From Candidatus Jettenia caeni (GTDB lineage Bacteria; Planctomycetota; Brocadiia; Brocadiales; Brocadiaceae), in the NCBI GenBank assembly GCA_000296795.1, contig BAFH01000003.1:1054401-1118400 (forward strand): a DNA stretch of 64,000 nucleotides, in the 5' to 3' direction. Numbering within the stretch: position 1 is the stretch's first letter; each line of letters starts with the position of its first letter. Of the stretch, positions 5,339-62,038 are shown piece after piece. The notes beneath the pieces were generated by a model. The model had not been told where the DNA came from. It made no database searches and worked only from the letters and a program-made list of their open reading frames with translations. Made by a program: the position numbers and the translations under genes.

Positions 5339-5876
5339 AAGTGCTGCAATTGCATTTGTTAATGCCCTTTTAGAGGTAGCTTTAAAGAAGGGAAATTTTG
5401 AGCAAATTGAGAAAGAACTGGATTTGGTTTCTGATGTAATCACAAGACACGATAACCTTAAAAAGATATTGTTTCATCCATCGATCCCAAGAAACGAGAA
5501 GAAGGATTTAATCAAGAATGTGTTTGGTGGATCTGTCTCAGATCTCATGAAGAATTTTTTGTATTTATTAGTGGATCGGAGAAAGATAGGCCTTCTGGAA
5601 TTTATTCCTGAGGTATATAAAACGGTTGCGAGTGAAAAGAAAGGAATCGTAAAAGCCAGAGTGCAGACAGTCATACCTCTGGCAGGAGAACGGCTAGACA
5701 ACTTCAAAAAGCAGCTCAGTAAACTTACTGGTAAAACAGTTGAGGTTGAAGTTGTTCATAATCCAGATATTTTGGGAGGTATGATAATCCAAATTGGTAA
5801 TAAAATGATTGATGGAAGTGTTGTGAGCAAATTAAAAAATCTCAAAACCAAATTACTATCGCTGCGAACAGCGTAG
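5328..5876 (+). CDS. atpH: F-type ATP synthase subunit delta
   Basis: 182 residues from a GTG start that overlaps the atpF stop, so translation is probably coupled. The N-terminal helical domain contacts the alpha crown ('AAIAFVNALLEVALKKG'), and the C-terminal domain carries the family signature 'NPDILGGMIIQIGNKMIDGSV'. It joins the b stalk to F1. After this gene the cluster is interrupted by about 240 bp before atpA, which is unusual for a contiguous atp operon. Confidence 0.93.
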   Translation: MLDKSAAIAFVNALLEVALKKGNFEQIEKELDLVSDVITRHDNLKKILFHPSIPRNEKKDLIKNVFGGSVSDLMKNFLYLLVDRRKIGLLEFIPEVYKTVASEKKGIVKARVQTVIPLAGERLDNFKKQLSKLTGKTVEVEVVHNPDILGGMIIQIGNKMIDGSVVSKLKNLKTKLLSLRTA

Positions 5877-5969
5877 TATAGTTTCAGTATTTTCTAAACA
5901 TGGAATAAAGCATCAAGTCCGATTTACAGATGCTTTTAGTAGCCCCGGAGCTTGGTGAATAGTACAATT

Positions 5970-5994
5970 TGTGGCAGGAGTAGCTCCTGCCACA
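5970..5994. repeat. Perfect 11 bp hairpin in atpH-atpA gap
   Basis: TGTGGCAGGAG, a 3 nt loop TAG, then CTCCTGCCACA form a perfect GC-rich stem. No T-run follows on either side, so it is not a standard Rho-independent terminator. It resembles the GC-rich extragenic hairpins found elsewhere in this window. It could stabilise the upstream Fo message, partially attenuate transcription, or be a dispersed repeat. Confidence 0.6.
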
Positions 5995-6119
5995 TAACTT
6001 GAAATTGAGGAATTTGATCATGGAGATTCTTTTGTATTTATCGCTTTTCACATGATTTGTTATTATAATTATGTAAGCGAAGAAAAGGGTCTAAATTATT
6101 TACGATAGGAGTGGGGGAT

Positions 6120-49597: not shown

Positions 49598-50944
49598 GTG
49601 GAAAAGGTAACGAGAGAAGAAGAGATTGATGAAATCGAAAAAATAAGGATGACTTTAGGCGCACACCTTGAAGAGCTGCGACGCAGGGTGGTTTATTCCA
49701 TTATCGCCATTGTTCTTTGCTTCGTATTCTGTTGGTTTTTTAAAGTGCAGATTTTGGATATAGCCAAAAAGCCCCATAGGTTTGCTATGGGAAAGGCAGG
49801 CCTTTCATCTGAGTTACAGGTGCTCAGCTATCAGGAGGGTTTTTATGCCTATATGAAATTGTGTTTTATAACATCGGTTTTTATCGCTTATCCGTTTGTC
49901 ATCTACCAAATATGGCAATTTGTAAGGGCAGGGCTTTATAAAAAAGAGAAAAAATATATACTCCTCTTCCTTCCTATTTCATACCTTGCTTTCGTGGTAG
50001 GAGGAGTTTTTGGGTATTTTTTACTTATACCCTTTGGTCTGCAATTTTTAATCGGTATTCTTGGTCCGGGAATACAACCAATTATTACCATGCAGCAGTA
50101 TGTTTCATTTGTGTTCATGCTGACTGTGGCATTAGGATTAGTATTTCAATTGCCTCTCGTTATGCTACTCCTGTCGAAGATTGGAATTGTTAGCCCTGAC
50201 AAATTCATTGCATGGAGAAAGTATGCCATCTTAGTAATATTTATTATTGCTGCTATAGTTACTCCACCCGATCCTTTTACACAGACTATGACTGCAGTTC
50301 CCATGATCATTCTCTACGAACTAGGAATCCTTATCGCAAGACCTACAAAAAAAGGATTTATTCTCCTGGGTACCGCTGTTGGTTGTGGAGCTATTGCTGT
50401 GGTTGGGGTATATTTTTATTTTACCCATAGGGGTGGAGAGATTAATGTGTCGAATCCGTATGGGGATATTCAGATTTTATATCCGGGCGATAGAGGGTGG
50501 AAGAAGGTATCAGGCCATATGTCCTTTCAGAAAGGTATTACCCTGAAAACTGGCAAGGGAGGGAGAACCGTCTTATCTACAAAAAAGGGGGTGAATGTAG
50601 GGATGGACACAAATACTGAAGCGCATTTTTTTGATTCCTGGAAGATGCAACTAAAAACCGGTCAAATCCTCATTTCGATGAAGGAATCGGAAATACCCTT
50701 AGAAGTTGATACCCCGAATGGGCGGATACGGATGAATAAGGGTACTTTAAATATCCAGGCGAAGGATATTGTTACTATTGTGACAGCCGTAAATGGCGAG
50801 GCTACTCTATTGATAGAAGGGGAAGAGAAAAAATTATTGGAAGGACGGCAACATAAGATGTCCATAGGCGGCGAACCTGTGGATATTGGGGCTATTATCA
50901 ATTGGTCAGAGGGTATAGTAACGAAATCTGATGAGCAAAAGTGA
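49598..50944 (+). CDS. tatC: TatC with a fused C-terminal FecR-like domain
   Basis: 448 residues, GTG start after CAGAGG. Residues 1-275: TatC, the twin-arginine translocase receptor, with 'LGAHLEELRRRVVYSI' and six transmembrane helices; 'VALGLVFQLPLVMLLLSKIGIV' and 'AAIVTPPDPFTQTMTAVPMIILYELG' are highly conserved. Residues 280-448: after a further helix ('GCGAIAVVGVYFYF') an extracytoplasmic FecR-like beta region ('GRTVLSTKKGVNVGMDTNTE', 'LEVDTPNGRIRMNKGTLNIQ'). TatC is normally about 250 residues with no such tail. ATP-independent export of folded proteins, including Fe-S and Mo proteins. Confidence 0.9.
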   Translation: MEKVTREEEIDEIEKIRMTLGAHLEELRRRVVYSIIAIVLCFVFCWFFKVQILDIAKKPHRFAMGKAGLSSELQVLSYQEGFYAYMKLCFITSVFIAYPFVIYQIWQFVRAGLYKKEKKYILLFLPISYLAFVVGGVFGYFLLIPFGLQFLIGILGPGIQPIITMQQYVSFVFMLTVALGLVFQLPLVMLLLSKIGIVSPDKFIAWRKYAILVIFIIAAIVTPPDPFTQTMTAVPMIILYELGILIARPTKKGFILLGTAVGCGAIAVVGVYFYFTHRGGEINVSNPYGDIQILYPGDRGWKKVSGHMSFQKGITLKTGKGGRTVLSTKKGVNVGMDTNTEAHFFDSWKMQLKTGQILISMKESEIPLEVDTPNGRIRMNKGTLNIQAKDIVTIVTAVNGEATLLIEGEEKKLLEGRQHKMSIGGEPVDIGAIINWSEGIVTKSDEQK

Positions 50945-51083
50945 TAAGATTATCAAGAGAAAACAGGAGAAAATACTTACCCTGAGCTTCTGTTTGAAAA
51001 CGTTGATTCCCAAAAAGTTTCTCCTTCGGATTTAGAATTATACTGTTTTCTTTCCTCAACTTGAAAAACATAATAAGTAAATA

Positions 51084-51926
51084 ATGGTTCAAGTAACAGA
51101 AGATACTTTTGAGTGTATTCTATCTACCTTCAATGAGCTACAAGAAATCAATCTTCAGGATGTAACCTTTATAGATCCTTACGGTATGGTTGGCCTTCTG
51201 GAATTAGGAGAATTATGTAAATCAAGGAATATTCGGAAAGTCATATATTTACCCCATTCAGAAGAAGTCCTTACATATCTTGAAAGGATGGATTTCTTTC
51301 GATTTGCTTATAACTATTTTGACCTCAGGCCTTCAAGACCGGAGATCTTGGAGAAATATCTGAGAAATTCGTATTCAGATGTCCTTCTTGAGATCACACC
51401 GATAGAAAAGTCAGATGATATCCATTTCATTGTTCGTAAGGTCAAAGAGCGTGCTCATGCAATCCTCAACAGGCATCTGCATTATAATGAGAGGGCAATT
51501 CATGGTTTTATCGTTGCACTTTCAGAGGTATGCCAGAATATCATTGAGCATAGCAAGGCCAGGGGGTTTGTAGGTATCCAGAAATATTTTTTCCAGAACA
51601 TAGGTAAAAATGTTGTAAAGATTGCCGTTATGGATATTGGTATGGGATTTAAAAAATCCTTATCTGAACGGTTTACCTTAAAGAATGACCTTGATGCTAT
51701 TGAAAATGCCCTCCTTCGCGGTGCATCCAGATTTGCAGAAAAAGGAAGAGGACACGGATTGGCTGCCGTAAGACGCTTTGTCAATCAATGGGATGGTAAA
51801 CTCTCCGTCCGTTCGGGAACTGCGAAACTCTCTATAATACCTGAGTGGGCATGGGGAAGAGAGAAAGAATTCCATCTTACTTATTTTCCTGGCGCCCAGA
51901 TAAACATCCTCCTGCCAGAAATTTAA
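51084..51926 (+). CDS. STAS-like + HATPase (anti-sigma-type) protein
   Basis: 280 residues, ATG start. N-terminal 90 residues look STAS-like ('INLQDVTFIDPYGMVGLLELGELCKSR'), C-terminal part is a HATPase_c of the RsbW/SpoIIAB type with N box 'ALSEVCQNIIEHSKARG', G1 'DIGMGF' and G2 'GRGHGLAAVRRFV'. A switch that phosphorylates or binds a partner; no sigma-factor gene adjacent. It sits at the left edge of the restriction island, and another STAS-like protein closes the island at 60.4 kb. Confidence 0.8.
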   Translation: MVQVTEDTFECILSTFNELQEINLQDVTFIDPYGMVGLLELGELCKSRNIRKVIYLPHSEEVLTYLERMDFFRFAYNYFDLRPSRPEILEKYLRNSYSDVLLEITPIEKSDDIHFIVRKVKERAHAILNRHLHYNERAIHGFIVALSEVCQNIIEHSKARGFVGIQKYFFQNIGKNVVKIAVMDIGMGFKKSLSERFTLKNDLDAIENALLRGASRFAEKGRGHGLAAVRRFVNQWDGKLSVRSGTAKLSIIPEWAWGREKEFHLTYFPGAQINILLPEI

Positions 51927-51951
51927 TTCTCATTTCTCCAAGATATTTTGT

Positions 51952-51979
51952 TTGACTTAGGTTCTATTTTGTTTATAAT
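51952..51979 (+). promoter_or_regulatory. Sigma-70-type promoter of the restriction-modification operon
   Basis: TTGACT, 16 bp, TATAAT, ending 75 bp before the methyltransferase ATG. Confidence 0.65.
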
Positions 51980-52054
51980 GAATTCAATTGAATCTATTGA
52001 ATAAGTGTTGTATTCCTCTGAAGTCAGAAAAAACCGCTTCCTATATCTAAAATA

Positions 52055-53947
52055 ATGACTCAACACTTTTTACCTCTCATAGATACTCCTCTGGAACAAA
52101 AATTCCTCAAAGCTATTATCTCTTATTATTTTCATGAAAATGATAAACTTGGTCTTGGACTTAGTAAGTCTCAAATAAGTACTGTATGTAAAGTACTTTT
52201 ATGTGGGAGCGAGTCTAATTCTGACAATCCTCCGACGTGGCAAATCAATGAAGAAACAATATTGGATGAATATCATAAAAAAGAATTTGCAATAATGGAT
52301 TATCTCCACATTGTTTCTCTTGAATTAAGAAAACAATTAGGGCAGTATGCAACACCAATTGAGATAGTGAGATATATAGTAAAATCGGTTGAATATATTC
52401 CATCGAAAAGTATTTTACAAAAGAGGCTTATAGACCCTGCCTGTGGTTCAGGTGCCTTTTTGGGAGAGGCATGCCGGGTTTACTTGAACGCCCTCAAAAA
52501 AGCTGCCATACCTATATCTGAATGGTATCCAATGATTATTTCGGCTATCTGTGGAATAGATATTGACCCAAAGGCTTGTTTCTTTGCCCGATTAAATTTG
52601 GCGATGCTCCTTGCGCCTCCCATCCTTGAATTTATCTCCAAGAATACTATCGCAAAATTAAAACCCCTGCCTATCCATTGTGCTGACACCTTGCATTTGT
52701 TAGCTTCAAGGAGAAAAAGTATTCCATTATTCTACGACAGAATCAGCATACCGTTAGAGGATCAATTTGATTTTGTTGTAGGCAATCCGCCTTATTATAA
52801 AATAAAAAATCTGGAACAAAATATAAAGAATACTTTTACGGAGTCTATTTACGGGCATCCCAATGCTTATGCCCTCTTTATTCATGCAGGTATTGAGATG
52901 TTAAGGACACATGGGAGATTGGGTTTCATAGTTCCCCGTTCAATGCTTTCGGGACTTTATTTTAAAAATCTCAGGGAGTTTATTGAAAAAAAAACAGCGA
53001 TAAAGGAAATCGTTAATATCTCGGATCGAAAAAATATTTTTGATGGCGTCCTTCATGGTACGATGATTCTTTCACTGAAACGAGGGAAACAGAACGATGA
53101 GAAAATTAATATTTCTCTCGTGAAAACTCTGGAGGATATACGAGATCAGCATAGGGCAGTAATTGTTGATAGAAATGAAGTAGTCCAACAGCTTAATGGT
53201 ACAACAGTATGGTTCGTAGCTGATTCTTTGGATGTATATAACATTCTTAGCAAGATAATTAAGGGAAGTCCTCTCTTATCTGGAAATCAAATTAATTATC
53301 GGGCAAAGACAGGACAGATTGTTTGGAACAGGGTTAAACCATTATTATCAACACAGAAAGAGCCAGATACCCTGCCGTTAGTATGGGCAACGGATGTCGG
53401 GAAGTTTAGTTTTTCTTTTAATAGAATGGGTATTGCAAGACCTTGTTTCCTGAAATCCAATTCAAAGACAAAACAGCTTATTGTTAAAGGCCTTTGTATC
53501 CTTGTTCAGCGTGTTACGGCAGATGAGCAACCGTCACGCATTATAGCTTGCATACCAGAAGAGTTGTGTAAAAAAGAGCACGATGGATATTTCGTTGAAA
53601 ACCATTTGAATATTATTCAGCCTACAAATGAAAGTAATACAATCGATCTCTATTTTATCCTTGGCATCCTCAATTCAGATGTTGTTGACTTCTTTTTCCG
53701 TACCATGAACGGCAACACGCAAGTTTCGGCTACAGAGTTGAATCTTCTTCCCATACCAACAGGCAAATCCGATGATAAAATTGCAGAGATTGCTAAAGAA
53801 ATTCAGGTAGTTGAGGAAGCAAAGAGAAAAAAGCTGTTTACAGAATTGAATGTTTTAGTGGCTAAAGCTTATGGTCTAAATATGAATGAGCTTCGCTTTA
53901 TAAAGAATCACCTCAACGAGAGGAAATATGACAATTCAGGAGATTAA
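52055..53947 (+). CDS. N6-adenine DNA methyltransferase (Eco57I/TaqI-like)
   Basis: 630 residues, ATG start. SAM-binding motif I DPACGSGAFLG at 128-138, catalytic motif IV NPPY at 244-247 in 'FDFVVGNPPYYKIKN', preceded by 'LRKQLGQYATPIEIVRYIV' (motif X). Motif order X-I-IV is that of gamma-class amino-methyltransferases. The C-terminal third ('LPLVWATDVGKFSFSFNRMG', 'NTQVSATELNLLPIP') is a TaqI-C/target-recognition-like region. It protects host DNA from the endonuclease encoded next, with which it overlaps by 20 bp. Confidence 0.92.
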   Translation: MTQHFLPLIDTPLEQKFLKAIISYYFHENDKLGLGLSKSQISTVCKVLLCGSESNSDNPPTWQINEETILDEYHKKEFAIMDYLHIVSLELRKQLGQYATPIEIVRYIVKSVEYIPSKSILQKRLIDPACGSGAFLGEACRVYLNALKKAAIPISEWYPMIISAICGIDIDPKACFFARLNLAMLLAPPILEFISKNTIAKLKPLPIHCADTLHLLASRRKSIPLFYDRISIPLEDQFDFVVGNPPYYKIKNLEQNIKNTFTESIYGHPNAYALFIHAGIEMLRTHGRLGFIVPRSMLSGLYFKNLREFIEKKTAIKEIVNISDRKNIFDGVLHGTMILSLKRGKQNDEKINISLVKTLEDIRDQHRAVIVDRNEVVQQLNGTTVWFVADSLDVYNILSKIIKGSPLLSGNQINYRAKTGQIVWNRVKPLLSTQKEPDTLPLVWATDVGKFSFSFNRMGIARPCFLKSNSKTKQLIVKGLCILVQRVTADEQPSRIIACIPEELCKKEHDGYFVENHLNIIQPTNESNTIDLYFILGILNSDVVDFFFRTMNGNTQVSATELNLLPIPTGKSDDKIAEIAKEIQVVEEAKRKKLFTELNVLVAKAYGLNMNELRFIKNHLNERKYDNSGD

Positions 53948-54857
53948 GACTGTTCTTGAGAAAATAAATTTTCCCCATCGGTTCGTTTCTGAACAAACAG
54001 CGGTATGCATAATGGCATTGTCCGATAAAACTGAAAGAAAGGGATTGTTAGCTGATCATAAAAGTTTGTGCGAAGGAGCCAGAATCCATGATATTTTGAA
54101 TTTCGCTAGAAATGAATTGGGTAAACAGGTTGCAGAAAATACACGAGAAGCATACAGAAAGACCTCCCTTGCACCTCTCTTGAATTATGGTCTTGTGGTT
54201 AGGCATCAACTCAGCACTAATGACCCAAATACATACTATAGACTCCATCCAAATTTTGAACGTCTTTTTTCTGAGAAACATCCTGAAAAGCAGCAAAATC
54301 TTATTGCTGAGCTACAAATTAAATCAACAAAATTAAGAGAACGACACACACGTAAGGTATCTCAGTATAATACTGTTTGTGTACAAATAAATAGTGAAGA
54401 TACCTTTTCTCTTAGTCCCGGTGCACACAACATCCTTGAAAAGGCTATCATTGAAGTATTTAGCCACGCTTTTTTAAGTAAGCTACAAGTGGTGTATCTT
54501 GGGGATACAGCACCAAGAAAAGGCTATCAAAATCGAGTATTAATGAGACGTTTGAATCTTCCCATTGATACTGCTGAATCATTACCAGATGTTATTCTTC
54601 TTTCTGAACATGAAAAACATCTTGTGATTGTTGAAGCAGTAACAAGCAGTGGTCCGATAAATCATATACGTCTTGAGCAATTACAGGAATTTACGCTAGA
54701 ATCAAGTAAATTGGGATACAAAATCAGTTATATTACCGCCTTTCCTTCCCGTGCTGTTTTTAGAAGGTTTGTTGAAGATATTGCTTGGGGAAGTAGTGTA
54801 TGGATTGAGAATGAACCAAATAATATTGTGCATTTTGAAGAGTTTGATGATAAATGA
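53928..54857 (+). CDS. BsuBI/PstI-like type II restriction endonuclease
   Basis: 309 residues, ATG overlapping the methyltransferase. N-terminal helix-turn-helix-like DNA-binding part (1-110), then the BsuBI/PstI C-terminal nuclease: 'VVYLGDTAPRKG', 'LPDVILLSEHEK' (D221), 'LVIVEAVTSSGPINHIRLEQL' (E236, in the PD-x-EAV arrangement of the PD-D/ExK-like fold) and 'ITAFPSRAVFRRFVEDIAWGSSVWI'. Relatives cut CTGCAG; specificity cannot be inferred here. Adjacent to its methyltransferase, as usual. Confidence 0.9.
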   Translation: MTIQEIKTVLEKINFPHRFVSEQTAVCIMALSDKTERKGLLADHKSLCEGARIHDILNFARNELGKQVAENTREAYRKTSLAPLLNYGLVVRHQLSTNDPNTYYRLHPNFERLFSEKHPEKQQNLIAELQIKSTKLRERHTRKVSQYNTVCVQINSEDTFSLSPGAHNILEKAIIEVFSHAFLSKLQVVYLGDTAPRKGYQNRVLMRRLNLPIDTAESLPDVILLSEHEKHLVIVEAVTSSGPINHIRLEQLQEFTLESSKLGYKISYITAFPSRAVFRRFVEDIAWGSSVWIENEPNNIVHFEEFDDK

Positions 54858-55357
54858 AATACAATCCTGAAACAGTAAAGATAGTTCCGAATGTCATTCA
54901 GAAGGAATTTGAATCTGAAGAAAATAGAAACAAGCATATAATTTCAAAAGTTCAAATAATGTTAACAGTCGCTAGTATTTTACTAACAGCAATAATTTTT
55001 CTTCTGAGAGCAGTGTTTGAACAAGATTGGCACAGATGTTTAACCACGCCATTACTAGTTTTTGCTATGTTTGTAATTATAGGATCAATACTTCTTTTTC
55101 TGAATATTATCCGTGTAAAGACCTTTCAAAGAATCGATTATGGGAAACTTATTTTTAACACGGAGCTAGAAAAAGAACCAGAAGAAGTTGGAGGTAGGCT
55201 GATTGCTACTTACGAAGATGCTTTAAAAATGAATGTTCGAGTTGTTGACGAATTGGTTGATACATTTAAAAAAGGCACTTTTTTAATTGAAGTTTCAGTT
55301 TGTTTATTTGCTGCTGTTTTATTTGTTATTTTAATTATATTTTTGAAAAATTTTTAG
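54854..55357 (+). CDS. Three-helix membrane protein coupled to the restriction operon
   Basis: 167 residues. ATGA overlap with the endonuclease stop, so translation is coupled. Transmembrane helices 'QIMLTVASILLTAIIFLLRAV', 'LVFAMFVIIGSILLFLNIIRV' and 'FLIEVSVCLFAAVLFVILIIFL'; a 60-residue soluble loop with 'RLIATYEDALKMNVRVVDEL' lies between the second and third. Architecture recalls small membrane effectors (Pycsar/CBASS 'S-4TM' or SLATT-like) but is not diagnostic. I cannot name the family. Confidence 0.65.
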   Translation: MKYNPETVKIVPNVIQKEFESEENRNKHIISKVQIMLTVASILLTAIIFLLRAVFEQDWHRCLTTPLLVFAMFVIIGSILLFLNIIRVKTFQRIDYGKLIFNTELEKEPEEVGGRLIATYEDALKMNVRVVDELVDTFKKGTFLIEVSVCLFAAVLFVILIIFLKNF

Positions 55358-55367
55358 GAGACCATGC

Positions 55368-55592
55368 ATGGGCAATAATGAAAATATTAGAGAAAAACCA
55401 TCGGGAGAAAATAATTCACAGCAAAATTCAACCCAAAGTAGCCAAGACAAGCCTCAAAGCTATGGTACTGTTTCAGTTCAAAAAGAATTAAACAGATCAA
55501 AACCAATAAGTTATGGAACAGTATCGAGGAGTTACACAGAAGATACAAAAAACAATGTTACTATTGAAAAACCTCTGAAAGAGGACAATTAA
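55368..55592 (+). CDS. Small disordered protein with repeated SYGTVS motif
   Basis: 74 residues, ATG after AGGAG, 10 bp from the membrane-protein gene. Highly polar (Asn, Gln, Ser, Lys), no hydrophobic core, two copies of SYGTVS ('QSYGTVSVQ' and 'ISYGTVSRS') 23 residues apart. Unknown family. Possibly a cytoplasmic partner or regulator of the membrane protein. Confidence 0.55.
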   Translation: MGNNENIREKPSGENNSQQNSTQSSQDKPQSYGTVSVQKELNRSKPISYGTVSRSYTEDTKNNVTIEKPLKEDN

Positions 55593-55600
55593 TAAAGTTT

Positions 55601-56965
55601 ATGCAACTAGGATTGCCAGGTATAAACGATAATATTGATGTCAGAAGAAAGAACGTCCTTTCTTCTCCAAAATTTGGTGGCTCATGCGATATTGACTCAA
55701 AACCTTACCTAAAAGAATTAGGTGTTGAGATCGTTGAAAGAAAACAGCCGATACAATTCACATCGAATTTTGGCGAACATGTTCACAGGTGGGCTCCTTA
55801 TATCCAGGGGTTTTCTGCTGCATTTGTACAATCAATACTCGACCAATATAAAGATGATTATAAATCACCCATTATTCTTGACCCCTTTGCTGGCTGTGGA
55901 ACCGTCCTCACCCAAAGCAAACTAAATGGCTACAAGTCTACAGGAACTGAGTTAAATCCGCTCCTCCAATTTATTGCAGATGTAAAGGTTAATTCATGGG
56001 ACATTGAACCTAAATTACTCCTGAAAATATTTTCATCTGTCCCTAAAGACTTGAAAACGCCTGCCCCTGAGTTTCTTAAATCTAAGAATCAATTCAATCC
56101 AGGAGTGCTAAGTAACTTAGAATTTCTCAAGGGCGGAATTGATGCTATTCCTACAAAAATCAAAGAACAAATGAAGGTCAAAAACCTTATCCTGCTTGCA
56201 TTTTCTTCAATTTTGATCGATTGCAGTAATCTTAAAAGAACTCCATGCCTTGGATACTGGAAAGGCAAAAAAGTAGCCGACAACGCTCCATGGATACTCA
56301 TGGAGCATAAGATTAAAGATATTTGCAAAGACCTTGAAATTCTTCAAACGAGATATAAAAAGAATATCTTTATAGAAAGTAATGTCTTACTTGTCAATGC
56401 GATGAAATACAGGCATGAGCACTTTTTTGATCTTGTCATTACCTCACCACCGTATATGAATGGACTTGACTATGTTATGAATTATAAGATTGAAATGGCA
56501 TGGCTTGGTTTTACACAAGGGACAAAGGATGCCAAAAAAGTAAAGGATAGTCTTGTTGTTTGTGACAACGTTTCCAAAGGATTAATCAAGACATTTGCTC
56601 AGTCAAACGCTAAATATTCAAATGGTTGGATAGAAGAAATAAAAGCAAATATCGAGAAAAATATAAAAAGGAGAGGTAATTATCGCCGAAGCGATATGCC
56701 TCATATCGTACATAAATACTTTGATGATATGTACAAGGTCATAAGTGTAGTTACAAAATCTCTTAAATCAAATAGTCGTTTTATTCTTGTTGTTGGTGAT
56801 AGCTTAATTGCCGATGTTTATGTGCCTACAGATTTGTTGTTAGCTAAAATCGGGACGGAGCTTGGACTTACCATTGAGAAAATAGAAAAGGCACGAGATC
56901 GCCGGTCCGGCCAGGTAAGAAATTATAGACTGAGAGAAACAATAATTACTCTAAAAAGAAACTAA
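55601..56965 (+). CDS. DNA methyltransferase (SPPY-type, N4-cytosine/N6-adenine)
   Basis: 454 residues, ATG start. Motif I DPFAGCGT at 94-101 precedes motif IV SPPY at 282-285 ('DLVITSPPYMNGLDYVMNYKIEM'), an order with a long spacer that holds 'YKSTGTELNPLLQF'. SPPY favours N4-cytosine or N6-adenine methylation of DNA. 'NYRLRETIITLKRN' is the usual C-terminal block. Starts 8 bp after the small protein and just before a GIY-YIG-like gene, suggesting a second restriction-modification pair in the same operon. Confidence 0.88.
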   Translation: MQLGLPGINDNIDVRRKNVLSSPKFGGSCDIDSKPYLKELGVEIVERKQPIQFTSNFGEHVHRWAPYIQGFSAAFVQSILDQYKDDYKSPIILDPFAGCGTVLTQSKLNGYKSTGTELNPLLQFIADVKVNSWDIEPKLLLKIFSSVPKDLKTPAPEFLKSKNQFNPGVLSNLEFLKGGIDAIPTKIKEQMKVKNLILLAFSSILIDCSNLKRTPCLGYWKGKKVADNAPWILMEHKIKDICKDLEILQTRYKKNIFIESNVLLVNAMKYRHEHFFDLVITSPPYMNGLDYVMNYKIEMAWLGFTQGTKDAKKVKDSLVVCDNVSKGLIKTFAQSNAKYSNGWIEEIKANIEKNIKRRGNYRRSDMPHIVHKYFDDMYKVISVVTKSLKSNSRFILVVGDSLIADVYVPTDLLLAKIGTELGLTIEKIEKARDRRSGQVRNYRLRETIITLKRN

Positions 56966-56980
56966 AAGGAATACAAGATA

Positions 56981-57880
56981 ATGGAAGATAAATTTGGATA
57001 TCATCAGGATATAAAAAATGGTGATGGAATAATTAGGGCGAGAACTACAGGCCATTTACGTTCTTGGGATATTCCGAAAACAATGCAAGCATTGGGAACA
57101 CTAAAGAAAGAATGGGGAAATCTTGAATATCCAGGTATCTACATCCTATTTGATGCTACATCCAGGAAGGTAGATATTGGAGAAGCAAAAGATGTTTGTA
57201 GCAGGCTTAAAACTCACTTAAATTCTCCTGAAAATAAAATTAAATATTGGGATAGGGCTGTCATTATCAATGATGGTAGATCGGCATTGCAGTCTGATTT
57301 TAATGATTCCGTCATAAGAAAATCATTGGAATTATATTTAATTTCATTATTCAAAGCAAACCGATATGCAGTTGTTGCACAAGGAGAACCACAGAAACAT
57401 AATCCACAGCAAAGATCCTTATTTCAGGCACTGAAGGATGAGTTTGATTTTCTCCTTATGAAAAAGAATTTGATTGTTAAACTCCTTGAAAAGCCAGGAC
57501 AGGAGGAAGTTCATAGAGATGAATTGAAGACAATATTGGAAAAGAAAGGCTATAAACTTGATAAGTGGAGGGCAGACGAAGCCATTTTAAACGGTGAAAA
57601 AACATACATTAGACCTGGGAGTCCTAAACCTAAAGATAATCCAAAATATTGGCAAATTACTTTCCGTGATAGATTTAAGGATTCTTTACAAGCAGGAAAT
57701 GGTTACCTTTTAGTTCCAAGAGGTGGTGTATTACTTATTCCTCTTAAGGAAGTTCAAAAGGTTATAACCGACCTTTCAAAATATAAGCAAAATACCATAG
57801 ATGTTTATGTAAATTTCAAAGAAGATACTATCAACCTATCCTACACAACTAACATGATAGATATACACAATTTCGATTAG
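56981..57880 (+). CDS. GIY-YIG-like nuclease, putative restriction enzyme
   Basis: 299 residues, ATG start, 15 bp after the methyltransferase. GIY (52-54) in 'YPGIYILFDATSRKVDIGEAK', then DIG (65-67) where the family has YIG, R75 in 'VCSRLKTHL', and E117 in 'KSLELYLISLF', the general GIY-YIG active-site set. The C-terminal half is unmatched ('LKTILEKKGYKLDKWRADEAIL' looks like a DNA-binding fold). Likely the endonuclease for the preceding methyltransferase. Loss of the first Tyr of YIG (Asp here) may lower or alter activity. Confidence 0.65.
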   Translation: MEDKFGYHQDIKNGDGIIRARTTGHLRSWDIPKTMQALGTLKKEWGNLEYPGIYILFDATSRKVDIGEAKDVCSRLKTHLNSPENKIKYWDRAVIINDGRSALQSDFNDSVIRKSLELYLISLFKANRYAVVAQGEPQKHNPQQRSLFQALKDEFDFLLMKKNLIVKLLEKPGQEEVHRDELKTILEKKGYKLDKWRADEAILNGEKTYIRPGSPKPKDNPKYWQITFRDRFKDSLQAGNGYLLVPRGGVLLIPLKEVQKVITDLSKYKQNTIDVYVNFKEDTINLSYTTNMIDIHNFD

Positions 57881-57955
57881 CAAAGTTAGTAAAATAAGCA
57901 AAACATGCAATTAAATAATCTTATAAAACCATTTATAAGAACTGGAGTAAATACT

Positions 57956-58249
57956 ATGAGTGAAGAAAGTGTAATAACCCTCAATGATAAAAAATTATAT
58001 CTTGCAACCTTCGAATTCATCTGCGGTGAATATGGACAAGTATTTGAAAAGGCCTTTTATGCAAAGGATGAAGAAACCTTAGAAAAGAAAATTCACAAAT
58101 ATCTTTTTAATTGCTATGGCAAAGGAAATATGTCTGAAATAAACAGAAATGTTTATTACTATTGGAATGGCGAGGTTGCAGTCAAAAATCACGGATGGGA
58201 AGAAATTACAGGTATCGAGCAACTTGTAGATAAACTCCTTCAATTATAA
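57956..58249 (+). CDS. Unknown small protein at end of restriction operon
   Basis: About 97 residues from ATG 57956, preferred over 57905 because TGGAG lies 8 nt upstream. Alpha/beta content with many aromatic residues ('KLYLATFEFICGEYGQVFEKAFYAKDE', 'RNVYYYWNGEVAVKNHGWEEI'). No family recognised. Last gene before the hairpin-rich spacer. Confidence 0.6.
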   Translation: MSEESVITLNDKKLYLATFEFICGEYGQVFEKAFYAKDEETLEKKIHKYLFNCYGKGNMSEINRNVYYYWNGEVAVKNHGWEEITGIEQLVDKLLQL

Positions 58250-59050
58250 CGAGAAGATATAGTAATCTCAAAACAAAATGTCACAGAGTAGAGTAAAATT
58301 TCCCAGAAAGTACAGATCAGTTTTTCCTCATCCCAAAAGAGACGGAGTGATAGAGTATCAAGTTATTGTTTAGTCAAGGGTGGCGCTGACAAATTTTGTT
58401 TGTCAGTGTGTTATATTCCCTACCCACGTGGGTATTGAAACAAGCACGGACAAACGGAGTTTGTCCGTGCCACCCAGAAAACCGCTTACATAAAATGGAA
58501 ATTCCTATATAATCGTAACTATTCAGCATGATTTTGTGGCCTACCATCTATGGCATAGAACGGTCAAAATCACATAAATTAGATATAAGTTGTACCGCTA
58601 TTATAGACAGAAAGTGAAATTCAAGGGTTTTTTGCCATATATAGTGTTTTTTGCTCAAACTACCTGAATAGTTACATATAATCAAGATATTTTTGTCTCA
58701 TAATCCCGAAGGGATGGTATGATTATAGCAAAAAAGCAGAAGAAAGGATTTGAACCCCGAAGGGGTGGCATAGAAAACCCGTGTATACCTGCCATTGCCT
58801 GGGAATTTGCCGTTGTCTTCTGATAATTATTTCACCCCTTCAAGGTTATTGATTTTGCGGTTATTCATTATCTATAATCATGACAGCCCTTCGGGCTTGA
58901 AATAGAGATCATCTTCATTTTATCTGTTATCACTTCTGAATTATAGGGCATTTTTGTACTATTTGTACTATTATGATCTCGAAAATAAAGCGACATTTTG
59001 TTTTAACATTACTATAACTATAGTAAATCTCGTCCGGTGTTTTTATTCAT
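58250..59050. repeat. 800 bp gene-free spacer of GC-rich palindromes
   Basis: Hairpins in order: CTGACAAA/TTTGTCAG (58386-58406); palindrome TACCCACGTGGGTA followed by TTGAAAC (58421-58441); GCACGGACAAA/TTTGTCCGTGC (58444-58470); ATCCCGAAGGGAT (58703-58715); CCCCGAAGGGG followed by TGGCAT (58755-58765); AGCCCTTCGGGCT (58885-58897). The two CCGAAGGG copies share a following TGG(T/C)AT. No reading frame, tRNA or direct-repeat array was found. Confidence 0.75.
59009..59026. promoter_or_regulatory. Palindromic operator-like site before the D12 methyltransferase
   Basis: TTACTATA-AC-TATAGTAA, a perfect 8 bp dyad with 2 bp centre, 24 bp before the start codon, resembling controller-protein boxes of restriction systems in form. 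No controller gene is in view. Confidence 0.5.
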
Positions 59051-60115
59051 ATGACAAAGACTTTTAATGAAAAACTGGCTTTTATTGAGGACTCAAAATT
59101 CCCTTCAACGCGATTCCAGGGCAGTAAGCTTAAGATTGCCGATTGGATATGGGAAGGGATAAAGGATTTGGAATTTCAAACGGCTTTGGACGCCTTTGGC
59201 GGAACGGGCAGCGTGGCTTATATGCTTAAGCAGAAGGGGAAAATCGTTACCTATAATGATATATTGAAATTCAATTATTATGTCGGGATGGCGTTGATAG
59301 AAAATGATAGTGTTACTCTTTCCAGAAAAGATATAGATTTTCTTTTTACGAGACACGCGGGAATAATCTATCCCGGTTTTATAGCGGAAACCTTCAAGGA
59401 TATCTATTACACAGATGAAGAAAATAGCTGGATAGATATGGTCGTGATAAATATCAGATTACTCAATGATACCTATAAACAAGCCCTGGCATATTTTGCT
59501 TTATTTCAGGCCTGTATTGCCAAAAGACCGTTTAATCTCTTTCATAGAAAGAATCTTTACTTGAGATTTGCTGATATTAAGCGGAATTTTGGAAATAAGG
59601 CAACCTGGGATACACCTTTTGAGGCTCATTTTAGAAGATTTGTTAAGGAGGCAAACAACGCTGTCTTTTCTCATGGACAAAAGAATCGAGCATTAAACCT
59701 TGATGTCTTTGATGTGAAAGAGGATTTCGACCTTGTATACATTGATACGCCTTATATTTCAAAGAAGGGTGTTGGTATCGATTATCTTGGGTTTTATCAT
59801 TTTCTTGAAGGCCTTGTAAATTACGAGACTTGGCCTGATATGATCGATTACAGGTCAAAGCATAAGAGGTTAAAAATAAAACCATCAGTTTGGGCTGATA
59901 AAAATAAGATCCATGCTGCATTTGACCAATTGTTTCAAAAATTTCGGGATAGTATTATCGTTGTTTCCTATCGTTCCGATGGGATTCCTTCTGTAGAAAA
60001 ACTTGCAGAGATACTCAGTAAGTATAAGAGAACGGTACATGAGATACAGAGGAAGAATTATAAGTACGTTTTAAGTAAAAATGAGATAGAGGAAATTCTT
60101 TTCATAGGGGAGTAA
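59051..60115 (+). CDS. D12-class (Dam-like) DNA adenine methyltransferase
   Basis: 354 residues, ATG start with no strong ribosome site. SRFQGSK N-terminal motif and motif I 'TALDAFGGTGSVAYMLK', catalytic DTPY at 232-235 ('LVYIDTPYISKKGVG'), the alpha-class (D12) order. DTPY replaces the commoner DPPY but is seen in this group. No nuclease partner adjacent; followed by two small genes in tight succession, so it may be an orphan methylase or part of a multi-gene system. Confidence 0.88.
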   Translation: MTKTFNEKLAFIEDSKFPSTRFQGSKLKIADWIWEGIKDLEFQTALDAFGGTGSVAYMLKQKGKIVTYNDILKFNYYVGMALIENDSVTLSRKDIDFLFTRHAGIIYPGFIAETFKDIYYTDEENSWIDMVVINIRLLNDTYKQALAYFALFQACIAKRPFNLFHRKNLYLRFADIKRNFGNKATWDTPFEAHFRRFVKEANNAVFSHGQKNRALNLDVFDVKEDFDLVYIDTPYISKKGVGIDYLGFYHFLEGLVNYETWPDMIDYRSKHKRLKIKPSVWADKNKIHAAFDQLFQKFRDSIIVVSYRSDGIPSVEKLAEILSKYKRTVHEIQRKNYKYVLSKNEIEEILFIGE

Positions 60116-60120
60116 AGAGC

Positions 60121-60417
60121 ATGGCAGCTATTATTTGCATTGATTACTATCAAAAAGAGCAATATCAGTTACTACTACAAACGGCAACTGATAGGGATAA
60201 GCTTGATGCTACGTACGATGGGTGGCTCAAGTCTTTTAGAAAAGCCTTTTCAAGTATAAAGAAAAGCGGGTTTGAGCCCGTAAAAGTAAATGTTGATGTA
60301 AAAGAGTTACTTGCCTATTGTATCGTGCAGGGTCTTGAAAATAATGCTATAACGCGCTCACAGTTCTGCGCAGATTTAGCCAAAGAAGGTAAATGGGAAA
60401 CGATTGAAAACAATTGA
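60121..60417 (+). CDS. Unknown protein linked to D12 methyltransferase
   Basis: 98 residues, ATG 5 bp after the methyltransferase stop. 'YDGWLKSFRKAFSSIKKSGFEPVKVNVDVKELLAYCIVQG' and 'NAITRSQFCADLAKEG' form a pattern I have seen in small hypothetical proteins of many bacteria, with no known function. Overlaps the next gene by 14 bp, indicating coupling. Confidence 0.65.
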   Translation: MAAIICIDYYQKEQYQLLLQTATDRDKLDATYDGWLKSFRKAFSSIKKSGFEPVKVNVDVKELLAYCIVQGLENNAITRSQFCADLAKEGKWETIENN

Positions 60418-60985
60418 TCCTAAAATGCATTTATATAATTTGTATACATTTTTGAAAGAAGAATTAAAAAATGGTTCAAACGATCTTGTGACAAGACCAT
60501 CGGGCCAGGTAATAAGGGAACGTGTTGAGAGGGACATTGTAAAAGAGGAGGATGGAGCTATTATTGCCCTTGATTTTTCAAGGATAGGGGTAATTGATTA
60601 CTCATGCGCCGATGAGATCGTGGCAAAGCTCATATCAAGGCTTTTAAGTGGTGAATATGGAGATAAATATATTGTACTTGTTGGTTTAAATGAGAATCAA
60701 AAAGAGAATATAGAGGTTGCCCTTGATAGAAAAGACCTTGCCGTAATTGCGAAGATGGAGGATAAAGGGAAGATTCTTATGGGAAAATTACATAACTATC
60801 TTCAAGATACGTTAGATGTTATCTTGAAAAAAGGCAGAATAACAGCAAAGGATCTCTCAGAGATTAAGAAGCTTGAGGCTAATACCAGTGGTACAAGGTT
60901 GTTAAATCTTTATAAGAAAAGGCTGGTAAAAAGAGTTGATGAGGTAGTGGCGAATGGAAGGGTATGGGTATATGAAGAGATTTAA
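60404..60985 (+). CDS. STAS-like (DUF4325-type) protein
   Basis: 193 residues. 'GAIIALDFSRIGVIDYSCADEIVAKLISRLL' and 'YIVLVGLNENQKENIEVALDRKDL' match STAS-like DUF4325 domains, which usually pair with HATPase switch proteins. A C-terminal helical part ('LKKGRITAKDLSEIKKLEAN') follows and may be a winged-helix-like region. Together with the STAS-HATPase protein encoded 9 kb upstream it hints at a partner-switching circuit around the DNA-modification island. Confidence 0.75.
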   Translation: MKTIDPKMHLYNLYTFLKEELKNGSNDLVTRPSGQVIRERVERDIVKEEDGAIIALDFSRIGVIDYSCADEIVAKLISRLLSGEYGDKYIVLVGLNENQKENIEVALDRKDLAVIAKMEDKGKILMGKLHNYLQDTLDVILKKGRITAKDLSEIKKLEANTSGTRLLNLYKKRLVKRVDEVVANGRVWVYEEI

Positions 60986-61081
60986 CCTAATGTTTAGGAA
61001 TCTCAATTCTGTAGGGTAACCTTTTGGGGTTGTTATCCCTGGCCATGCATGCAGGCGTGGAGGCAAGGCTAAAGCCTCGTC
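60986..61081. repeat. GC-rich hairpins between island and ribF
   Basis: AGGGTAAC.../GTTATCCCT near 61013-61039 and GAGGCAAGGCTAAAGCCTC (61060-61078). They separate convergent genes and resemble the other extragenic palindromes. Confidence 0.5.
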
Positions 61082-62038
61082 CTACATCTCCGTTTTTTTA
61101 GGGAATGCCTTCCGGAGAAGCGTCTCCTTGTCTTTTTCAATCTGTGCCTTGAGTTCTTCCACGGTTTCAAATGGCATTTCATCCCTTATTTTAAAGAGGA
61201 ATTGTACCTCAAGATCCTGCCCGTAGAGTGAACCCTGGAAACCAAGGATGTGGACTTCAATCTCCAGTGTTTCACCCTCATCAGGAAAGGATCCTTTTGC
61301 AAATGTTGGTCGTAAGCCTATATTGGTCAATGCCGGATAATCTTGTCCAGTGTAGTGGACTTTTGTTCCGTAAACGCCCCTCGGTGGTCTTACTTCATGA
61401 TGTAGATTCAAATTGGCCGTAGGATAGCCCAATATCCTTCCTCTACCAGATTTCTTTACTACGGTGCCCAGAATAGAAACAGGTCTGCCGAGCATACCTT
61501 CCGCCTTCTCTAACGCTCCTTCTAAAATTGCCTGGCGGATAGCCGTACTACTAATTATTTGATCTTTGTATATTACCGGTGGGCACTCATACACTTCAAA
61601 GTTATAGGTATCTGCCAAGGTACGGACCAATGTTATATCTCCCTCACGGTCTTTCCCAAAACGGCAATTGAATCCCAGAACAATGCATTTTACACCAAGC
61701 CAGCCGACTAATATCTCATGGATAAAATCCTCAGCAGTCATTTGTGCAAGTTTTGGGGAGAAATTAAGTATTATAATATAATCGACCCCCAGACGCTCAA
61801 ATAATACCAATCGATGTTCTAAAGAGGTGATAAAGGAAGGATGCCTGTTCTCCAGAAGACTTTTCGGATGACGATCAAAGGTGATTATTACCGATTCACC
61901 CTTTTTCCCCGAAGCGTAATGCCTTACGCTCTCAATAATTTTTTGATGTCCCCGGTGTACACCATCGAACATCCCAAGGGTTACCACAGGATTGTGAATT
62001 TTTCTGGTTAATTCCTTTATCCCATAGATCTTTTCCAA
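61082..62038 (-). CDS. ribF: Bifunctional riboflavin kinase / FAD synthetase
   Basis: 318 residues, ATG start. N-terminal nucleotidyltransferase: 'VVTLGMFDGVHRGHQKII' (HxGH-like) and 'GFNCRFGKDREGD'; C-terminal kinase: 'GRILGYPTANLNLHHEVRPPRGVYG' and 'NIGLRPTF'. Makes FMN and FAD, completing the flavin route with RibH. Overlaps nothing; the SurA-like gene lies 28 bp upstream on the same strand. Confidence 0.97.
   Translation of the reverse strand: MEKIYGIKELTRKIHNPVVTLGMFDGVHRGHQKIIESVRHYASGKKGESVIITFDRHPKSLLENRHPSFITSLEHRLVLFERLGVDYIIILNFSPKLAQMTAEDFIHEILVGWLGVKCIVLGFNCRFGKDREGDITLVRTLADTYNFEVYECPPVIYKDQIISSTAIRQAILEGALEKAEGMLGRPVSILGTVVKKSGRGRILGYPTANLNLHHEVRPPRGVYGTKVHYTGQDYPALTNIGLRPTFAKGSFPDEGETLEIEVHILGFQGSLYGQDLEVQFLFKIRDEMPFETVEELKAQIEKDKETLLRKAFPKKTEM

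What the first reader, a model, noticed from the sequence alone, without database searches (positions are those of the whole stretch)
59009..60985. D12 methyltransferase, small protein and STAS-like protein as one cassette
Three genes with 5 bp gap and 14 bp overlap. Dam-like methyltransferases are usually solitary or next to nucleases; linkage to a DUF4325-type STAS protein is uncommon and suggests a regulated epigenetic or defence unit. A perfect dyad lies 24 bp ahead of it.
Basis: partly seen in the sequence, partly recalled or inferred. Interest (0 to 1): 0.55.

Follow-up and report, generated by a model that had tools for sequence, protein, structure and literature searches.

The report
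Kinase and repressor bracketing restriction genes
The three genes are the tail of a larger operon of DNA-restriction genes that is bracketed by a kinase gene and a repressor gene and starts at a shared DNA switch, an arrangement that recurs in bacteria of different phyla with the restriction genes swapped in between.

Summary
The three ORFs are real, but they are not the unit. In the loci examined, the MTase–98 aa–STAS order occurs only in Candidatus Jettenia (3 genomes), and the 59009 dyad sits in intergenic DNA not matched in the two sister loci.

The STAS-like gene ('ST', STAS + winged helix) is one half of a pair. The other half ('HK', 51084-51926, STAS + GHKL kinase) lies 8.5 kb upstream. 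HK was found in 61 of 77 ST-bearing genomes. Where both share a contig (42), HK is first and ST last on the same strand in all 42, with 0.16-10.9 kb between, rich in restriction-modification (R-M) genes.

Between HK and ST, 45 of 45 loci carry a promoter-operator: TTGACA plus the 19-bp dyad TTCAATTGAWTCAATTGAA (window 51983-52001), the only such site (2 or fewer mismatches) in this 4.1-Mb genome.

HK and ST are homologous to CapK/CapS (EMBO J 2026), a kinase-repressor pair that induces immune operons on DNA damage. In all 443 published cases capK and capS are adjacent; here cargo usually lies between. Best reading: a CapKS-like switch split around swappable R-M cargo, ST repressing the operon and itself, HK phosphorylating ST to induce it. 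Binding and phosphorylation are inferred. New variant of a known kind.

The parts
51084..51926 (+). HK: CapK-like protein, N-terminal STAS + C-terminal GHKL (HATPase) kinase, 280 aa, first gene of the unit
   Evidence: Pfam HATPase_c 31.5 bits (cut-off 26.4), STAS weak (16 against 22.6); AF2 model pLDDT 87.6; ATP-site motifs in 44-45 of 45 homologs; HH match to a plasmid CapK-like protein E 7e-15
51952..51957 (+). -35 hexamer TTGACT of the cargo promoter
   Evidence: TTGAC upstream of the operator in 43 of 45 loci; window position
51974..51979 (+). -10 hexamer TATAAT
   Evidence: 16 bp from the -35
51983..52001 (.). operator TTCAATTGAATCTATTGAA (1 mismatch to TTCAATTGAWTCAATTGAA)
   Evidence: 45 of 45 loci; single site in the genome at 2 or fewer mismatches to TTCAATTGAWTCWATTGAA
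52055..53947 (+). cargo: Eco57I/TaqI-type N6 DNA methyltransferase
   Evidence: PF07669, PF02384, PF12950
53928..54857 (+). cargo: BsuBI/PstI-type restriction endonuclease
   Evidence: PF06616 154.8 bits
54854..55357 (+). cargo: small membrane protein (cluster in 7 loci)
   Evidence: PycTM 2.8e-4; cluster c6
55368..55592 (+). cargo: 74-aa protein that follows the membrane gene (4 loci)
   Evidence: cluster c16
55601..56965 (+). cargo: N6_N4 DNA methyltransferase
   Evidence: PF01555; cluster c4, 8 loci
56981..57880 (+). cargo: GIY-YIG nuclease, found with the preceding MTase family in 8 loci
   Evidence: PF01541 22.5 bits, just under its cut-off 22.6; cluster c5
57905..58249 (+). cargo: 114-aa protein of unknown function
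   Evidence: cluster c17, 4 loci
58250..59050 (.).
59051..60115 (+). cargo: D12 MTase, motifs FGGTGS and DTPY, like the C-terminal half of fused MTases beside AlwI-family REases
   Evidence: PF02086; PDLC03261 1.4e-65 over profile 306-622 of 643
60121..60417 (+). cargo: 98-aa protein, Jettenia only in the loci examined
60404..60985 (+). ST: CapS-like STAS + winged-helix protein, last gene; start possibly ATG 60425
   Evidence: PF14213; AF2 pLDDT 93.6; best PDB sequence matches 9Z72 and 9Z71 = CapS; S67 in 78 of 80 homologs

Best explanation
The finding is the 3' end of a regulated restriction-modification operon. HK (CapK-like kinase), a promoter overlapped by a 19-bp dyad operator, a variable block of R-M genes, and ST (CapS-like winged-helix repressor) form one unit. 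ST binds the operator over the promoter's -10/start region and holds down the whole operon, itself included because it is the last gene. When a signal (by analogy with CapK, single-stranded DNA from damage or phage attack) activates HK, HK phosphorylates ST on Ser67, ST leaves the DNA, and the R-M genes are induced; fresh ST then closes the loop. SHOWN by computation: the pairing, order and strand; the operator in every locus fetched that holds both genes on one contig; its uniqueness in this genome; the R-M cargo; the homology of ST to CapS; the conserved serine and kinase motifs; signs of lateral spread of the pair. INFERRED: ST as the operator's reader, repression rather than activation, phosphorylation, the signal, and induction of R-M. 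The D12 MTase and the 98-aa protein are, in the loci examined, Jettenia-specific cargo.
For: Pairing: HK (E 1e-20 or better) in 61 of 77 ST-bearing genomes; same contig in 42, all 42 HK first, same strand (coordinates). Phylum sample: ST in 22, HK in 20, both in 16 of 392 genomes, 3 of the 16 by weak HK matches of 35-40%. Operator: 45 of 45 loci, mismatches 0/1/2/3/4 in 16/23/2/3/1 loci, TTGAC upstream in 43; none outside HK-ST at 3 or fewer mismatches; single site in this genome. Held-out contigs: 11 of 20 HK stretches whose ST is elsewhere have it, as do 8 of 35 other ST loci, always upstream of ST. Cargo: of 142 proteins 30 match N6_N4_Mtase, 9 N6_Mtase, 6 D12, and several REase families 2-4 each; the outside control shows RmuC, FtsX, MutS and similar. 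Motif [DNS]PP[YFW] in 38 of 102 cargo against 2 of 135 outside proteins of 200 aa or more. Cargo strand 161 same, 10 opposite. In 21 of 43 loci the gene before ST ends within 40 bp of it or overlaps it on the same strand. ST: CapS crystal structures are its best PDB hits; 31% identity to a Cytobacillus plasmid protein that follows a CapK-like gene ahead of a ThiF-family gene. HK-ST co-divergence r = 0.80, 0 of 2000 permutations as high (41 loci).
Against: No binding, phosphorylation or expression data. The consensus was read from the same loci in which it was counted; only searches are partly independent. 16 of 77 ST genomes lack HK at the cut-off, and in 19 the two are on different contigs. 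9 of 20 HK-only stretches show no operator: four of these have it on the ST contig (L030, L034, L051, L077), but Scalindua rubra (G427) and G439 have 10.2 and 12.3 kb after HK with neither operator nor ST, and two others have 5.3-5.5 kb without. Five loci have no cargo ORF after the operator (L132, L152, L153, L156, L157), and 15 of 43 loci examined have no cargo protein with the MTase motif. HK lacks CapK's N-terminal HTH. L156 has an RND efflux pump between HK and the operator. ssDNA sensing was not tested.
Confidence: 0.75

Rival explanations
1. Hitch-hiking: HK and ST control something else, and the space between them is only a tolerated landing site for defence genes.
For: Five loci keep HK-operator-ST with no cargo ORF after the operator. 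In L156 an efflux pump sits inside the bracket but before the operator.
Against: Cargo runs 161 to 10 on the unit's strand, mostly follows the operator, abuts ST in 21 of 43 loci, and the operator is unique in this genome, leaving no other obvious target.
Confidence: 0.13
2. The operator is read by another regulator, or ST activates rather than represses.
For: No binding data. Many small cargo proteins are unassigned.
Against: Only the HK and ST clusters occur throughout the loci (45 and 44 of 45; the next largest cluster is in 10), and of the two ST has the DNA-binding fold. The dyad lies over or just after the -10, a repressor position. The homolog CapS is a repressor (PMC13373217).
Confidence: 0.08
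3. ST acts on a protein, as VapS does on VapC: it holds a cargo enzyme inactive until HK phosphorylates it.
For: VapKSC is a published relative (PMC13373217, section 13). ST abuts the last cargo gene in 21 of 43 loci.
Against: [quoted passage not shown] The neighbouring cargo changes from locus to locus, so there is no constant protein target.
Confidence: 0.05
4. The first reader's self-contained MTase-98 aa-STAS cassette with its own dyad at 59009.
For: The three genes are tightly packed and the dyad is exact.
Against: The order is limited to 3 Jettenia genomes in the loci examined. The dyad is missing in both sister loci and lies in a variable stretch.
Confidence: 0.04

Closest known systems
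CapK + CapS (Chambers et al., EMBO J 2026, PMC13373217; abstract, sections 7 and 11-14, and passages read)
   Same: STAS-GHKL kinase plus STAS-winged-helix protein; [quoted passage not shown] palindromic site overlapping the promoter of an immune operon; sequence homology of ST to CapS (PDB 9Z71-9Z73).
   Different: Published capK is immediately followed by capS in 443 of 443 cases, and in most the pair is followed by the immune operon (348 of 443; 88 of 443 lie downstream of an R-M system). Here the pair is split by the operon, one operator serves cargo and ST together, the dyad sequence differs (CAATTG boxes, not TTAA half-sites), HK has no N-terminal HTH, and the cargo is rich in R-M.
VapKSC (same paper, section 13)
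   Same: CapK-like STAS-GHKL kinase and a STAS protein with a phosphorylatable residue.
   Different: VapS has a short C-terminal region instead of a winged helix and inhibits a PIN nuclease; three-gene operon.
RptR (Zhang et al., NAR 2025, PMC12255303; abstract and outline seen)
   Same: Dedicated repressor of an R-M defence island; small palindromic binding site.
   Different: Small repressor associated with type I R-M; the abstract names no kinase and no bracketing.
HEF_HK + Response_reg_2 (PMC8011034; abstract, section 8 and passages read)
   Same: GHKL kinase-like and partner gene linked to R-M genes, type II above all.
   Different: Two-component-like, with response-regulator-like and histidine-kinase-like domains and paraMORC affinity; 'STAS' does not occur in the main text.
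BrxR WYL regulators (PMC9122601; search listing only)
   Same: Regulator family co-located with diverse defence systems and islands.
   Different: WYL-domain transcriptional regulator.
MutL/MORC homologs in R-M systems (PMC2292703; search listing only)
   Same: GHKL ATPases associated with R-M systems.
   Different: GHKL + S5 ATPase module, not an anti-sigma-type kinase.

Membership tests
CapK/CapS | Substrate protein = STAS domain + C-terminal winged helix | tested here: met
   AF2 model of ST, pLDDT 93.6; winged-helix rows Z 9-11 over about 127-193 and STAS rows Z about 10 over 3-123
CapK/CapS | Sequence homology to CapS | tested here: met
   9Z72 E 6.1e-7, 9Z71 E 7.9e-4 as top PDB hits, identified as CapS in the paper's data section
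CapK/CapS | Conserved phosphorylatable Ser in the STAS domain of the substrate | tested here: met
   S67 in 78 of 80 homologs and in both plasmid CapS-like proteins; phosphorylation itself not tested
CapK/CapS | Kinase = STAS + GHKL with intact ATP motifs | tested here: met
   the Pfam STAS match alone is below its cut-off
CapK/CapS | N-terminal HTH on the kinase | tested here: not met
   HK is 280 aa with STAS-like strands and helices from the N-terminus; no HTH in Pfam. The paper reports that deleting the HTH had no effect on induction or phosphorylation
CapK/CapS | capK immediately followed by capS | tested here: not met
   680 bp or more between the ORFs in 42 of the 43 loci measured; only L157 is nearly adjacent at 141 bp
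CapK/CapS | Repressor binds a palindrome over the operon promoter | not testable with these tools
   the palindrome over the promoter is present in 45 of 45 loci; binding needs an assay
CapK/CapS | Kinase activated by ssDNA | not testable with these tools
   the residue equivalent to CapK W68 was not located
D12-class N6-adenine MTase (PF02086) | Pfam model above the gathering score | tested here: met
   51.1 bits against 22
DUF4325 (PF14213) | Pfam model above the gathering score | tested here: met
   25.2 bits against 23
BsuBI/PstI type II R-M (cargo) | REase domain plus neighbouring N6 MTase | tested here: met
   PF06616 154.8 bits at 53928-54857; Eco57I/N6_Mtase at 52055-53947

The most novel reading that the evidence does not exclude
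HK, operator and ST form a portable, laterally spreading 'socket' into which successive R-M systems are exchanged while the switch stays. R-M in these anammox and Nitrospirota bacteria would then be inducible, DNA-damage-triggered immunity rather than constitutive. Placing the repressor last would make it a read-out of complete operon transcription and would let a newly arrived operon express its methyltransferases before repression sets in.
Probability: 0.4. Interest if true: 0.75.

Novelty: new variant of a known kind. Interest (0 to 1): 0.62.

Why it matters
How restriction-modification is regulated is still little known, and CapKS was described in 2026 only as an adjacent pair. A split form wrapped around interchangeable R-M genes, with one strictly conserved operator across phyla, gives a ready test of whether R-M can be inducible and how such operons are swapped and kept safe. 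It also gives a DNA signature (TTGACA...TTCAATTGAWTCAATTGAA) for finding new defence cargo in uncultured bacteria.

Tried and rejected
Three-gene order as a general cassette: rejected. The dyad at 59009 as an operator: rejected (the DNA alignment was too poor to use). ST relatives in plasmids, phages and viral contigs: none found by those searches. Operator in viral contigs: 8 contigs match the exact 19-mer, but none has TTGAC upstream or an HK/ST match at 0.01, so chance or unrelated. Rfam over 50900-61400: nothing at the gathering score. The 98-aa protein: no plasmid match and no family. PDB search with the HK profile: no match at 0.01. Distant planctomycete matches (ST about 42%, HK 35-40%, different contigs) were not built on. 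CapS Asn145: the alignment puts it one column from ST N160, so no equivalence is claimed; CapS Ser54 lies outside the aligned stretch, so its match to ST Ser67 rests and on motif position. Literature: searches listed no paper that describes this split arrangement; CapK/CapS (PMC13373217) is the close one. The two Jettenia papers were not opened. Those searches cover open-licence PMC papers only.

Dropped rows: L150 was left out of the strand, gap and cargo counts because its ST ORF lost to an antisense ORF in my greedy gene caller; the window was left out of A1/A2. A1 holds the 142 plus-strand cargo proteins of 130 aa or more; A2 is a random 142 of 186 outside proteins (191 less those of L165). 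Close relatives (L123, L165) are counted in the 45 loci and in A1. The outside set is not free of PADLOC matches (RmuC-type 9, mad3 3, DpdF and a few MTase models 1 each among the 25 of 87 families shown). In one search, 41 of 45 loci were used, and L137, L154 and L161 were left out of the between-group comparison. The shuffle kept only base composition.
Full report
WHAT IS THERE. The 14-bp overlap depends on a TTG start; 69 of 80 aligned homologs have Met at the residue that is ATG 60425 here, which would give a 7-bp gap. The dyad at 59009-59026 is exact but is one of 23 perfect 8-bp-arm dyads in the window, and no copy at 2 or fewer mismatches occurs in 44 other loci, both sister loci included. 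It lies in an 801-bp stretch without a match in the sisters; L123 has 24 bp between the same two genes. The window's genome is a close relative of Candidatus Jettenia ecosi (AtpD 99% identical to the genome holding L024; the genus name is inferred from that record's title).

THE REAL UNIT. Searching the STAS-like protein (ST) gave 22 of 392 genomes of the phylum and 77 loci in the genome collection at 53-94% identity, from records named as Planctomycetota, Nitrospirota and others. Among the 100 loci then held, the MTase and the 98-aa protein accompany ST only in Jettenia. What does accompany ST is a protein encoded upstream, window 51084-51926 (HK): at E 1e-20 it was found in 61 of the 77 genomes. 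Coordinates put both on one contig in 42 genomes; in all 42 HK comes first and ST last on the same strand, 163 bp to 10.9 kb apart. In the other 19 they lie on different contigs. The phylum sample gives HK in 20, ST in 22 and both in 16 of 392 genomes, three of the 16 by weak HK matches.

CARGO. I fetched 44 such loci (the 42 plus two from the phylum sample) and mapped genes. ORFs of 100 aa or more between HK and ST run 161 with the unit and 10 against it; outside, 133 to 74 (43 loci). Of 142 cargo proteins of 130 aa or more, Pfam finds N6_N4_Mtase in 30, N6_Mtase in 9, Eco57I in 7, D12 in 6, GIY-YIG in 6, and the restriction endonuclease families TdeIII 4, MjaI 3, MvaI_BcnI 3, Mrr_cat 3, BsuBI_PstI 2-3; families overlap in one protein. 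Of 142 outside proteins the commonest are RmuC 9, FtsX 5 and MacB 5, with MutS 3. One PADLOC MTase_II model (PDLC03353) matches 29 cargo proteins and 1 outside protein; the commonest PADLOC match outside is an RmuC-type model, 9. The motif [DNS]PP[YFW] is in 38 of 102 cargo and 2 of 135 outside proteins of 200 aa or more, and in at least one cargo protein of 28 of 43 loci (L150 had no cargo list). Loci with the same right-hand neighbour carry largely different cargo: four have the c28 gene after ST (a MutS gene in the member scanned, L145), namely L136, L143, L145 and L146; four have c24 (RmuC in the member scanned, L141), namely L130, L138, L141 and L151; a few small cargo families are shared within each group. 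So the cargo changes while the bracket stays.

THE SWITCH. In the DNA after HK I saw the same element in unrelated loci: TTGACA, then the dyad TTCAATTGAWTCAATTGAA (two CAATTG boxes 9 bp apart). The best site between HK and ST has 0, 1, 2, 3 or 4 mismatches in 16, 23, 2, 3 and 1 of 45 loci (44 loci plus the window). TTGAC precedes it in 43 of 45, most often with 17 bp between the -35 hexamer and the dyad (28 loci), so that the -10 region overlaps the dyad. None of the 45 loci has a copy outside HK-ST at 3 or fewer mismatches. Where extra genes lie right after HK (small two-gene blocks in several loci, an RND pump in L156) the operator lies after them. In the window it is 51983-52001 with -35 at 51952 and -10 at 51974, and it is the only site at 2 or fewer mismatches in the 4.09-Mb genome. 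Because the consensus was read from these loci, partly independent checks matter. On 20 HK stretches whose ST is on another contig, 11 have a site at 2 or fewer mismatches after HK and 9 have none; four of the 9 have it on the ST contig. Of 35 ST loci outside the 44, 8 have a site at 3 or fewer mismatches, all upstream of ST. In 392 genomes a looser promoter-plus-half-operator pattern gave 23 places in 19 genomes, 11 of them beside HK and 12 elsewhere; the reversed control gave 1. L157 shows the minimum: HK, operator, ST and no cargo.

PROTEINS. ST is modelled with high confidence (pLDDT 93.6) as a STAS domain plus a winged helix. HK is modelled (87.6) as a STAS domain plus a GHKL kinase; RsbW/UsfX-type anti-sigma kinases are among its fold matches but not the first. 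The kinase motifs are intact in 44-45 of 45 homologs; ST Ser67 is kept in 78 of 80, the two exceptions being distant relatives. At the matching place of HK's own STAS motif (DPYG against DYSC in ST, compared by eye) stands Tyr in 38 of 45 and never Ser among the residues counted.

WHAT IT WORKS LIKE. CapK and CapS (PMC13373217) are a STAS-GHKL kinase and a STAS-winged-helix repressor; ssDNA activates CapK, which phosphorylates CapS, splits its dimer and frees the immune operon. The CapS crystal structures 9Z72 and 9Z71 are the best PDB sequence matches of the ST profile (E 6e-7 and 8e-4). On a Cytobacillus plasmid, relatives of HK and ST lie side by side ahead of a ThiF-family gene, the published kind of arrangement; ST is 31% identical to that CapS-like protein and the HK profile matches its neighbour (E 7e-15). 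The family link is therefore tested, not only recalled. The differences are real: 443 of 443 published capK genes are directly followed by capS, whereas here the operon lies between; there is one operator for cargo and repressor; the dyad differs; HK has no HTH. Two defining features fail, so I file this as a CapKS-like variant rather than as CapKS.

SPREAD. HK and ST average 0.80 and 0.81 identity among 12 anammox loci and 0.70 and 0.72 to 26 others, reaching 0.82 (grouping by record titles and kinship). AtpD drops from 89-99% within the anammox genomes to 67-71% in the others (one partial match 78%; 24 of 26 genomes matched). The pair's between-group similarity thus overlaps its within-group similarity, as lateral transfer predicts. 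HK and ST distances correlate (r = 0.80; 0 of 2000 permutations as high), which fits travel as a pair, though shared descent adds to it.

MECHANISM AND LIMITS. Most likely ST represses the operon at the -10-overlapping dyad and HK releases it. That ST reads the dyad is inferred: HK and ST are the only clusters found throughout the loci, ST has the DNA-binding fold, and the operator is constant while the cargo is not. Signal, phosphorylation and induction are by analogy. The D12 MTase itself resembles the C-terminal half of fused MTases that sit beside AlwI-family endonucleases on three plasmids opened; none of the ten ORFs scanned here matched such an endonuclease. Five loci have no cargo ORF after the operator and some long HK stretches show no operator, so the rule has exceptions.

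Noticed in passing
window 28442-31144: Formate dehydrogenase reading frame crossed by one in-frame TGA (29513-29515) in the context CART-U-HAPS, as expected for a selenocysteine codon (the family name is recalled, not searched).
   Followed up: partly
L141, L145, L153, L156 and related loci, downstream of ST: Chromosomal genes soon after ST include DNA-repair-type genes: RmuC (9 of 142 outside proteins), MutS (3), CinA (2). Suggestive next to a possible damage-sensing switch, but not tested for enrichment.
   Followed up: partly
L097 (same contig as L167), 5488-6091: HK residues 2-43 lie directly before ST residues 12-170 at a contig end: an apparent deletion of everything in between.
   Followed up: no
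L127:13269-13562, L127:4167-4400, L160:4249-4650: Small conserved proteins recur in the bracket: c2 (about 94 aa, often the last gene before ST, 10 loci), c3 (about 77 aa, CDGFCPxC motif, often soon after the operator, 9 loci), c9 (about 144 aa, cysteine-rich, right after HK, 6 loci); no Pfam family passes its cut-off for the one member of each that was scanned.
   Followed up: partly
L156:4511-10290: An AcrB-family ORF with two neighbouring ORFs sits between HK and the operator, outside the presumed control of the operator.
   Followed up: no
window 58250-59050: 801-bp stretch without a match in the sister loci; parts are 71-78% similar to another place in the same genome (locus L179), as for a dispersed repeat.
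   Followed up: partly
G122:C1:3194214-3194743: A broken HK relic with two stops in a relative that has no ST match.
   Followed up: no
L124, L128, L134 (clusters c19/c20) and L125, L131 (c49/c50), between HK and the operator: Small two-gene blocks of toxin-antitoxin size lie between HK and the promoter; not annotated further.
   Followed up: no
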